A stretch of 64,000 bases of DNA from Solibacteraceae bacterium (GTDB taxonomy: Bacteria; Acidobacteriota; Terriglobia; Bryobacterales; Bryobacteraceae). Positions 7,803 through 14,882 of this stretch are shown here, in pieces (position 1 is the first letter of the stretch; each line of letters opens with the position of its first letter). The notes below the pieces were generated by a model that was not told the DNA's origin, searched no databases, and saw nothing but the letters and a program-made list of their open reading frames with translations. The stretch is from assembly GCA_021324015.1 (NCBI GenBank), contig JAJPJX010000023.1:62001-126000 (forward strand). The letters are read 5' to 3'. The translations under genes and the position numbers were made by a program.

Positions 7803-8381
7803 TCAAGTTTTACTGGTGACGCCCGCGCGGGCAAGTTGGCGGTGCATGACCGCCAGAAGCTTGCGCATGCCCCGGTCCCAGTCCGGAAACAGGTCGAGGT
7901 ACTGCCATTCTTTCTGGATCCGGGCGGGCACGGCGCAGTCGTCCAGCCGCACCGGGATCAGAAAAATCTCGTCCAGCGGCACCCGGCGGGCGCAGTCCAG
8001 AGCGTAGCGGATCTCGGCCTGGAATCCGCCTTTCTTGCTCACCGAGCGGTGGGAGAAGCAGGGGACAAAGAAGTCGCAGGTCTCGATCGCTCCTTCGATG
8101 GAGCGCGGCCAGTTCTGTCCTGGCAGGAGCTTGCGGCGGTCCATCCACGGCTCGAAGCCGCTTGCCCGGAGGTTGTCAAAAAGCTGATCCACAGCCCGGG
8201 CATCCTCCTGCACGTAGGCCAGAAAGACTTTGGGCTGGGTCTTCGCCAGGAAGCGGAATCCGCAGCGGCGGTCGGGGAGAAACACCCCCAGGCCGTCGAT
8301 CTCCACGCGGCGGCCGTCCTGCAGACACTGCAGCAGAATGCGCGCCACCTCGCCGGCGCTCGAAGCGTGACTAGGCGTCAT
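7803..8381 (-). CDS. TIR-domain protein with an N-terminal half-HU segment
   Basis: 192 residues. Residues about 51-183 are a bacterial TIR domain: PKVFLAYVQED (strand A and box 1), FEPWMDRRKLLPGQNW (BB loop), CDFFVPCFSHRSVSKKGGFQAEIRYALD, with Glu123 at the place of the catalytic Glu of TIR NADases, and IFLIPVRLDDC. Residues about 10-45 (ILLQCLQDGRRVEIDGLGVF, then PDRRCGFRF) resemble the helix and first beta-hairpin of HU/IHF and match the protein encoded just upstream. Its ATG lies inside the 3' end of that gene (11-nt overlap), so translation is probably coupled. Possible roles are NAD+ depletion in defence or signalling; neither is shown by the sequence. Confidence 0.85.
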   Translation of the reverse strand: MTPSHASSAGEVARILLQCLQDGRRVEIDGLGVFLPDRRCGFRFLAKTQPKVFLAYVQEDARAVDQLFDNLRASGFEPWMDRRKLLPGQNWPRSIEGAIETCDFFVPCFSHRSVSKKGGFQAEIRYALDCARRVPLDEIFLIPVRLDDCAVPARIQKEWQYLDLFPDWDRGMRKLLAVMHRQLARAGVTSKT

Positions 8382-8592
8382 GATCCGGCCGCCCTTTCTG
8401 CGGATCGAGTTCGAAATGGAAGCCGTGCCGGGTGGCGGGCGTGAACATGCCCAAGCCGGGCAGCGCGGCGGGCTGCCCCTTTCGCAAATTGGAGAGAATC
8501 TGGTGAACCACTCGGTCCAGTTGATCGGCGGCTTCGGCCTTGCTCACGCCGGATTGCCGGGCCAGTCTTCTGGCAAGTTCCGGTTTCTTCAT
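8371..8592 (-). CDS. minimal HU-like protein, 73 aa
   Basis: The first 55 residues follow the HU/IHF fold: MKKPELARRLARQSGVSKAE (helix 1 and turn), a second helix ending ILSNLRKG, then LPGLGMF, where HU has its GFGTF strand. After one short hairpin (PATRHGFHFELD) the protein stops with a charged tail, so the long DNA-binding arms and the last helix of HU (about 90 residues) are missing. It may be a dimerisation partner rather than a normal nucleoid protein. GAGG 7 nt before the ATG is a plausible ribosome site. A GC hairpin (8613-8629) lies in its leader. It overlaps the TIR gene by 11 nt. Confidence 0.75.
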   Translation of the reverse strand: MKKPELARRLARQSGVSKAEAADQLDRVVHQILSNLRKGQPAALPGLGMFTPATRHGFHFELDPQKGRPDHDA

Positions 8593-8667: not shown

Positions 8668-8765
8668 TGGATTCAACGGAGTAGGGTGTGTGCGGGGAAG
8701 TTGGGAAAAGGTGTGAATCCATACATGAAGTGATTTTAATTACGGATTAAGAGCCAGTTCATGTA
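8668..8765. repeat. two interleaved 8-bp inverted repeats between divergent genes
   Basis: TGGATTCA (8668-8675) with TGAATCCA (8714-8721), and TACATGAA (8722-8729) with TTCATGTA (8758-8765). Both pairs are perfect. They lie in the 231-bp region between the HU-like gene and the Lys-rich small gene and could be regulator sites. 8-bp matches arise by chance at a fair rate, so the call is weak. Confidence 0.3.
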
Positions 8766-8823: not shown

Positions 8824-8970
8824 ATGAAGAAACTGATGACCGTGCTGCTCGGCCTGTCGTTCCTGGCGGGCACCGTAACCGCCACCTTCGCGCAGGAAAA
8901 GACTCAGAAGACCCAGAAGAAGAAGAGCCACAAGAAGAAGGGCGAGACCAAGAAGGAAGGCACGCGGTAA
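8824..8970 (+). CDS. short secreted Lys-rich protein, 48 aa
   Basis: A small gene with a strong AAGGAG ribosome site about 8 nt before ATG. Residues 1-23 are a clear signal peptide (MKKLMTVLLGLSFLAGTVTA then TFA), and the mature 25 residues are almost only Lys, Thr, Gln, Glu and His, so the exported product would be a very basic, disordered peptide. The coding potential is supported by the ribosome site, signal peptide and clean stop, followed by a hairpin at 8993. No function is known to me; counter-ion, surface or matrix roles are guesses. It is not overlapped by any better gene. Confidence 0.7.
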   Translation: MKKLMTVLLGLSFLAGTVTATFAQEKTQKTQKKKSHKKKGETKKEGTR

Positions 8971-13495: not shown

Positions 13496-13921
13496 ATGAA
13501 CATTTCCGTGAAAGCCGAGTATGCCCTCCAGGCCTTGTATGATCTGGCGGCGCAACATTCCGCGGAACCCGTCAAGATCGCAGAGATCGCCCAACGGCAG
13601 AAGTTCCCGCAGAAGTTTCTGGAATTGATTCTGGCCGGCCTCAAGCAAGGGGGCTTCGTGGAGTCGCGGCGCGGCGCGGAGGGCGGGTACCTGCTGGCGC
13701 GCCCGGCCGACCGCATCACGATCGGCGAAGTCCTGCAGTTTGTGGAGGGCCGGCAGCCCGGCAAATCCCGAAAGCGAGAGACGACAGACTCTCCTTTTGC
13801 GGAGATGTGGGCGCGCGTGGAGCGGGCTGTTTCCGACGTGGTGGATCAAACCACCTTTGCGGACCTGCATCGCGAGTGGACGGAGAAGCACTCCAGATTC
13901 GTGCCGAATTGGGAGATCTGA
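13496..13921 (+). CDS. Rrf2 family transcription regulator, CymR-like, without Fe-S cysteines
   Basis: 141 residues. The N-terminal winged helix shows the family pattern ([53 protein letters not shown]). Unlike IscR or NsrR, the protein has no cysteine at all, so it cannot bind an Fe-S cluster through the usual three-Cys site. It is 4 nt upstream of cysK. In Bacillus the cysteine-free Rrf2 protein CymR represses sulfur genes in complex with CysK, so a similar sulfur-sensing role is likely here by context. The ATG is 18 nt after GAGGAG, an unusually long gap. Confidence 0.85.
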
Positions 13922-13925
13922 GCGA

Positions 13926-14882
13926 TTGATCTACGCCGATAATTCCTTTAGCATCGGGCGCACGCCTCTGGTGCGCCTGAACCACATCACGCAGGGGCTG
14001 GGAGCGACGATTCTGGCGAAAATCGAAGGGCGCAACCCCGCCTATTCGGTGAAGTGCCGCATCGGCGCCGCCATGGTTTGGGACGCGGAAGAGCGCGGCG
14101 TGCTGAAGCCCGGCAAAGAAATCATCGAGCCCACCAGCGGAAACACCGGCATCGCGCTGGCTTATGTGGCGGCGGCGCGCGGGTACGCTATCACCCTGAC
14201 AATGCCCGAAACCATGTCCATGGAGCGCCGCAAGGTGCTCAAAGCCCTGGGCGCCAATCTGGTGCTGACTGACGGCGAGCAAGGCATGGCCGGATCCATC
14301 GCCAAGGCCGTGGAACTGGTCAATTCGGCCCCGGAGCACTACGTGCTTCTGCAACAGTTCGAGAATCCCGCCAACCCGGACATTCACTTCCGCACCACGG
14401 GCCCGGAAATCTGGGACGACACCGAGGGGGCCGTGGACGTGCTGGTGGCCGGCATCGGTACCGGCGGTACCATCACCGGAGTCTCCCGCTATATCAAGCA
14501 GACCAAGGGCAAGAAGATTGTCTCGATCGGGGTGGAGCCGTCCGGGAGCGCGGTCATCACGCAGACTCTGAACAGGAAGCCCATACGCCCTGGTCCGCAT
14601 AAGATTCAGGGGCTGGGAGCGGGTTTTATTCCCGATACCCTGGATCTCAAGCTGGTAGACCGAGTGGAAACCGTGACCAACGAAGAAGCCATCGAATTCG
14701 CGCGACGACTGGCCAGTGAAGAGGGAGTCCTGGCCGGAATCTCCGGCGGCGCAGCTACCGCGGTGGCGGTGCGGGTCGCGCATGAGGAAGCCATGCGCGG
14801 GAAGATGCTGGTGGTGATTCTGCCGGACTCCGCCGAGCGCTACCTCAGCACCGCCTTGTTCGACGGTGTTGCCGACGCGTGA
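13926..14882 (+). CDS. cysK: cysteine synthase (O-acetylserine sulfhydrylase)
   Basis: 318 residues from a TTG start at 13926, 4 nt after the regulator's stop; an upstream continuation of the frame lies inside the regulator and is not used. O-acetylserine + sulfide gives cysteine, cytoplasmic, PLP-dependent. PLP lysine is Lys43 in [13 protein letters not shown]; the phosphate/substrate loop [11 protein letters not shown] follows, and [14 protein letters not shown] binds the PLP phosphate. The C-terminal SGGAA is normal. Context with a CymR-like regulator suggests a self-regulating sulfur switch, but this is inference. Confidence 0.93.

What the first reader, a model, noticed from the sequence alone, without database searches (positions are those of the whole stretch)
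7803..8592. Minimal HU-like protein plus TIR-domain protein: candidate undescribed two-gene system
Two overlapping minus-strand genes encode a 73-residue HU-like protein that ends before the DNA-binding arms, and a TIR-domain protein with the candidate catalytic Glu123. TIR domains in bacteria often cleave NAD+ in anti-phage defence or make nucleotide signals. No sensor known to me (Thoeris ThsA, SAVED, APAZ) is present; the HU-like part could be a new DNA- or nucleoid-linked sensor. The overlap suggests fixed stoichiometry. The defence role is inference.
Basis: partly seen in the sequence, partly recalled or inferred. Interest (0 to 1): 0.8.

Follow-up and report, generated by a model that had tools for sequence, protein, structure and literature searches.

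The report
Conserved mini-HU and HU-TIR gene pair
Two overlapping genes, one for a stripped-down DNA-packing (HU) protein and one for a half-HU joined to a TIR enzyme domain, are inherited together in most members of one soil-bacterial family, which points to a resident, chromosome-linked TIR switch rather than a typical mobile anti-phage system.

Summary
So the two proteins carry matching HU pieces and probably pair. In the window's family (Bryobacteraceae) about 120 of 150 genomes have the full TIR protein, with the mini-HU directly upstream in essentially every readable case. Glu123 is invariant in 59 distinct sequences. The pair is single copy, tracks RpoB phylogeny, sits at a recurrent chromosomal site, is missing as a unit in some genomes, and was not seen in other Acidobacteriota families (one probable contaminant contig), phages or viral contigs. 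This fits a vertically inherited, lineage-specific module better than a mobile defence system. Best guess: an HU-HU complex places a TIR NADase on DNA or the nucleoid and controls its assembly. Enzymatic activity, DNA binding and complex formation are inferred, not shown. Defence remains possible.

The parts
8371..8592 (-). mini-HU gene, 73 aa: helix 1, helix 2 and a short three-strand hairpin; no DNA-binding arms, no C-terminal helix; short variable basic tail
7803..8381 (-). HU-TIR gene, 192 aa, start overlaps the mini-HU stop by 11 nt
8244..8360 (-). half-HU segment of the TIR protein (residues ~8-46: helix 2 and hairpin, no helix 1)
7827..8231 (-). TIR domain (residues ~51-185)
8013..8015 (-). 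codon of invariant Glu123, aligned with Glu77 of SPARTA TIR-APAZ
8725..8763 (-). conserved 39-bp cis element CATGAA-N6-CTTAA-N7-TTAAAA-N4-TTCAT between the mini-HU gene and the divergent small peptide gene; probably the small peptide's control site, perhaps shared
8824..8970 (+). divergent 48-aa Lys-rich peptide with a signal-like N-terminus; conserved left-hand neighbour, not clearly part of the system

Best explanation
This is a lineage-specific, vertically inherited two-protein module. The mini-HU and the half-HU of the TIR protein pair through their shared HU core into an armless HU-like body with a TIR domain on it. That body holds the TIR on DNA or on the nucleoid (perhaps beside normal HU) and keeps TIR domains apart or assembles them according to the state of the chromosome. 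When assembled, the TIR cleaves NAD+ (depletion or an ADP-ribose-type signal) through Glu123, as a stress response. Shown: conserved linkage, the second HU segment, TIR fold, invariant catalytic-type Glu, inheritance pattern. Inferred: pairing, DNA binding, NADase activity and the trigger.
For: Half-HU in the TIR protein: profile-profile probability 94.6%, score 46.1 against at most 9.1 in 50 column shuffles and 4.1 for the TIR core; both model as a helix plus short hairpin, though at modest confidence. Genes overlap by 1-20 nt in 45 of 57 distinct pairs. Both are absent together: in ten searched genomes without the HU-TIR protein, mini-HU searches found nothing or only longer HU frames of 108-141 aa. 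The TIR fold is closest to the NAD-cleaving SPARTA TIR (VIA Z 16.0, rmsd 2.8 over 129 residues); E123 aligns to E77, whose alanine mutant is the catalytic-dead control in PMC10474274. Near-universal and single copy in the family; rpoB-TIR Mantel r 0.45, 0 of 5000 permutations, 8 shared tree splits against at most 3 in shuffles. Recurrent locus with TPR in 26 and uvrC in 24 of 47 loci. The genome keeps three ordinary full-length HU genes, so the mini-HU is not the housekeeping HU.
Against: No biochemical data. The mini-HU lacks the arms that canonical HU uses to grip DNA, so it may be only a pairing module. The TIR half-HU lacks helix 1, so how it would pair is unclear. Pocket conservation relative to SPARTA is partial: F45 corresponds to invariant W91, but W46 corresponds to Pro92 and T11 to variable position 58. 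The mini-HU model is weak (pLDDT 62, pTM 0.34). Absence from several near-complete genomes means it is not essential.
Confidence: 0.38

Rival explanations
1. A chromosomally fixed anti-phage system: the HU pair senses phage DNA or phage disruption of the nucleoid and releases TIR NADase activity, giving abortive infection.
For: TIR NADases are common defence effectors; closest structures are SPARTA TIRs; an N-terminal sensing domain on a TIR is known, e.g. SpbK, whose N-terminal part binds a phage portal protein (PMC11984713); absence of the whole unit in some genomes.
Against: Near-universal, single copy, RpoB-congruent, at a recurrent housekeeping locus; among 71 neighbour genes the PADLOC families shown at E<=1e-10 each had one member, and the best models are protein-kinase ones; no phage or viral copies and only more distant TIR matches on plasmids.
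Confidence: 0.25
2. A toxin-antitoxin-like module: the small upstream mini-HU binds the half-HU of the TIR toxin and holds it inactive (possibly also autorepressing); stress frees the TIR and NAD+ falls, giving dormancy or tolerance.
For: A small basic gene overlapping and preceding an enzyme gene in 45 of 57 distinct pairs; matching HU pieces on both proteins; precedent for a core-genome NAD-depleting toxin-antitoxin pair, NatR-NatT (PMC11535050).
Against: Neutralisation untested; vertical, near-universal retention is unusual for most toxin-antitoxin pairs.
Confidence: 0.22
3. The TIR is a non-enzymatic assembly domain: an HU-HU-TIR nucleoid or repair scaffold.
For: Partial pocket conservation relative to SPARTA; uvrC lies about 1 kb downstream in half of the loci.
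Against: Glu123 is 100% invariant together with W79, D81, G88, W91, F120 and R125; uvrC is separated by a TPR gene on the opposite strand and is absent from the other half of loci, so the link may be positional only.
Confidence: 0.1

Closest known systems
SPARTA TIR-APAZ / short Argonaute
   Same: Closest solved TIR fold; catalytic Glu aligned; two-gene operon with a nucleic-acid-related partner
   Different: No APAZ domain and no Argonaute; the partner is a 73-aa HU-like protein; vertical inheritance
Thoeris (ThsB TIR + ThsA)
   Same: Small TIR protein in a two-gene unit
   Different: No ThsA-like gene beside it; ThsB models match only weakly
HU/IHF nucleoid proteins
   Same: N-terminal half of the HU fold, residues 1-56
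   Different: No arms and no C-terminal helix; the partner HU piece is fused to a TIR
Armless HU domains (Pfam HU-CCDC81_bac_2, HU-HIG)
   Same: Weak matches to the mini-HU and, for HU-HIG, to the TIR N-terminus
   Different: Scores are below the curated cut-offs; no TIR or split-gene form of them was found in the paper library
NatR-NatT toxin-antitoxin (RES domain)
   Same: Core-genome two-gene module with an NAD-consuming enzyme and a small partner
   Different: Unrelated enzyme fold and partner

Membership tests
TIR domain superfamily | TIR fold and sequence profile | tested here: met
   PF13676 E 3e-25 over the full profile; VIA Z 16.0 to the SPARTA TIR
NAD-cleaving TIR enzymes | Catalytic Glu in helix alpha-C | tested here: met
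   E123 invariant, aligned with E77 of TIR-APAZ
NAD-cleaving TIR enzymes | Pocket residues as in SPARTA (T11, F45, W46) | tested here: inconclusive
   F45 = W91 invariant; W46 = P92; T11 = variable position 58
NAD-cleaving TIR enzymes | NAD+ hydrolysis or cyclisation | not testable with these tools
   needs an assay
HU/IHF DNA-binding proteins | N-terminal helical body | tested here: met
   PF00216 1-56, E 4.1e-9; HU chains top the PDB sequence and fold hits
HU/IHF DNA-binding proteins | Beta arms and C-terminal helix | tested here: not met
   protein ends at 73 aa (median 70 in relatives); match stops at profile position 56 of 90
HU-CCDC81 / HU-HIG armless HU families | Score above the Pfam cut-off | tested here: not met
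   26.6 against 35 bits and 23.0 against 26.2 bits
Thoeris | Adjacent ThsA-type effector | tested here: not met
   window neighbours; neighbours of relatives show no such model among the families listed
SPARTA | APAZ domain and adjacent short Argonaute | tested here: not met
   the TIR protein ends after the TIR domain; no Argonaute among the window's neighbours
Mobile anti-phage defence systems in general | Patchy, horizontally moving, defence-island location | tested here: not met
Type II toxin-antitoxin | Small partner neutralises a toxic enzyme | not testable with these tools
   gene arrangement fits; toxicity and neutralisation need experiments

The most novel reading that the evidence does not exclude
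A split armless HU body, shared between a mini-HU and a TIR enzyme, acts as a nucleoid-integrity sensor that turns chromosome or DNA stress into NAD+ cleavage or an NAD-derived signal, as a resident function of one bacterial family rather than an immune system.
Probability: 0.3. Interest if true: 0.85.

Novelty: new variant of a known kind. Interest (0 to 1): 0.6.

Why it matters
Bacterial TIR proteins are mostly read as mobile defence effectors. A TIR enzyme inherited vertically across a family, with HU-type nucleoid protein pieces on both partners, would link chromosome state to NAD metabolism and would offer a testable case of a resident TIR function. It also defines a compact two-protein system suited to direct biochemistry.

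Tried and rejected
Chance neighbours: rejected, since the mini-HU is upstream in 57 of 59 distinct sequences, with a partial mini-HU end at a contig edge (L021/L038) and a degenerate copy (L090) in the other two. Mini-HU as the housekeeping HU: rejected, three ordinary HU genes exist. Natural single-chain fusion to model the complex: none among the long frames examined. A third component: no neighbour is conserved in all loci; uvrC, TPR, Rrf2, cysK and the small peptide are conserved only in subsets. tRNA-linked integration: few tRNAs near the loci. The first rpoB comparison gave r 0.09 because one rpoB was taken from the wrong frame; corrected. Plasmid hit on Thioflavicoccus: an N-terminal TIR followed by repeats annotated as HEAT, no HU segment. 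The conserved cis element near the pair was first taken as a candidate HU-TIR operator, but it stays with the small peptide gene in genomes lacking the pair. Structural second look: rows covered residues 49-186, so it neither supports nor opposes the HU fold of residues 8-46. Literature searches with the terms used found no HU-TIR system, but the library is open-access only. Whole genomes outside the phylum could not be searched with this profile.

Full report
Observation. The two ORFs are exactly where stated. The mini-HU (8371-8592, minus, 73 aa) and the TIR ORF (7803-8381, minus, 192 aa) overlap by 11 nt. Pfam gives PF00216 for residues 1-56 of the mini-HU (profile 1-56 of 90) and full-length TIR_2 for residues 52-176 of the second protein. 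The mini-HU therefore stops before the arms and the last helix. Among solved structures its sequence and model hit HU proteins. The genome also has three ordinary full-length HU genes.

A second HU piece. A self-search of the genome with the TIR protein also hit the mini-HU gene weakly, and in many relatives the mini-HU query hits the N-terminus of the TIR protein. Profile-profile comparison of the two family alignments gave probability 94.6% and score 46.1 over 43 columns; 50 column shuffles gave at most 9.1, and the TIR core gave 4.1. The model shows helix 9-21 and strands 26-28, 32-37, 41-46 ahead of the TIR fold, the same helix-hairpin pattern as the end of the mini-HU (helix 18-37, strands 42-44, 48-52, 58-60). 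Helix 1 is missing from the TIR copy. That the two pieces pair is inference.

The TIR. Foldseek and the second-look aligner place it with SPARTA, SARM1 and other TIRs. In the alignment with a TIR-APAZ chain, E123 falls on the Glu at position 77 by my count of the printed alignment; E77A is the catalytic control in PMC10474274. That paper worked on a homologous SPARTA, so the transfer of numbering is an inference. Of its pocket residues, F45 corresponds to invariant W91, W46 to P92 and T11 to a variable position. E123, W79, D81, G88, W91, F120 and R125 are invariant in 59 distinct sequences. Activity is untested.

Distribution. In the family, 123 of 150 genomes match at E <= 1e-12, of which about 120 are the HU-TIR protein and the rest other TIR proteins; named relatives are Bryobacterales/Bryobacteraceae. 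None of the 20 sampled genomes from the two other families of the order has it, and a 297-genome phylum sample gave only TIR-domain matches outside the family. One class-level genome, G487, has a full copy, but its 16-kb contig is broadly similar to Bryobacteraceae loci and the assembly is listed as 4% contaminated: probably contamination, not settled. No copy was found in phages or viral contigs; four plasmid records matched at E <= 1e-15, and the one read in full is a TIR-repeat protein without an HU segment.

Linkage and inheritance. The mini-HU is upstream in 57 of 59 distinct sequences; in the other two a mini-HU end is visible at a contig edge and a degenerate copy is seen. Overlap is 1-20 nt in 45 of 57. 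In ten searched genomes lacking the HU-TIR protein no mini-HU was found, only longer HU frames in three of them. Distances of TIR and mini-HU correlate with RpoB (Mantel r 0.45 and 0.49, 0 of 5000 permutations), and 8 of 25 tree splits are shared, against a shuffled mean of 0.25 and a maximum of 3. Both genes show excess third-position change.

Locus. In 26 of 47 loci a TPR gene on the opposite strand lies downstream, and in 24 of 47 uvrC lies downstream; in 9 a cysK-Rrf2 pair lies on the other side, as in the window at 13496-14882. In 21 of 57 loci a small Lys-rich peptide gene diverges from the mini-HU gene. In G070 and G109, which lack the pair, the small peptide gene is followed directly by the TPR gene, as in an empty site. 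Whether that is loss or the pre-insertion state cannot be told. Neighbours do not look like a defence island: across 71 neighbours each PADLOC family shown at E <= 1e-10 had one member, with kinase models the best (25 of 40 families were shown).

Mechanism and rivals. The best-supported reading is a resident two-protein switch in which HU pieces pair and position a TIR NADase, controlled by DNA or nucleoid state. Fixed anti-phage defence and a toxin-antitoxin-like role are serious rivals; the NatR-NatT pair shows that a core-genome NAD-depleting toxin-antitoxin exists. A non-enzymatic scaffold is less likely given the invariant Glu.

Novelty. No NCBIfam system model reaches its cut-off and PADLOC models match only the TIR part, and the literature searches run here found no description. 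It is a new variant of the known class of small TIR-effector operons, with an unusual partner and an unusual inheritance pattern.

Noticed in passing
window 8725-8763 (minus) and 8824-8970 (plus): A 39-bp element CATGAA-N6-CTTAA-N7-TTAAAA-N4-TTCAT, zero to two copies per genome in the 19 searched (reversed-pattern control zero), next to a conserved 40-60 aa Lys-rich peptide gene with a signal-like N-terminus; the element and peptide persist in genomes that lack the HU-TIR pair.
   Followed up: partly
L152 and L153 (G070, G109): Apparent empty site: the small peptide gene lies next to the TPR gene with no HU-TIR pair between them.
   Followed up: partly
24 of 47 relative loci, e.g. L036:6757-8580: uvrC about 1 kb downstream of the TIR gene, beyond a TPR gene on the opposite strand; a functional link to repair is unproven.
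   Followed up: partly
L073 (G064), L046-L052: Other Acidobacteriota TIR proteins related to this TIR domain but with other partners, e.g. kinase-like N-terminus before a TIR, or a long C-terminal part after it.
   Followed up: no
L155 (G487): Full mini-HU/HU-TIR pair in a genome assigned to another family of the class; the contig resembles Bryobacteraceae loci, so contamination or transfer.
   Followed up: partly
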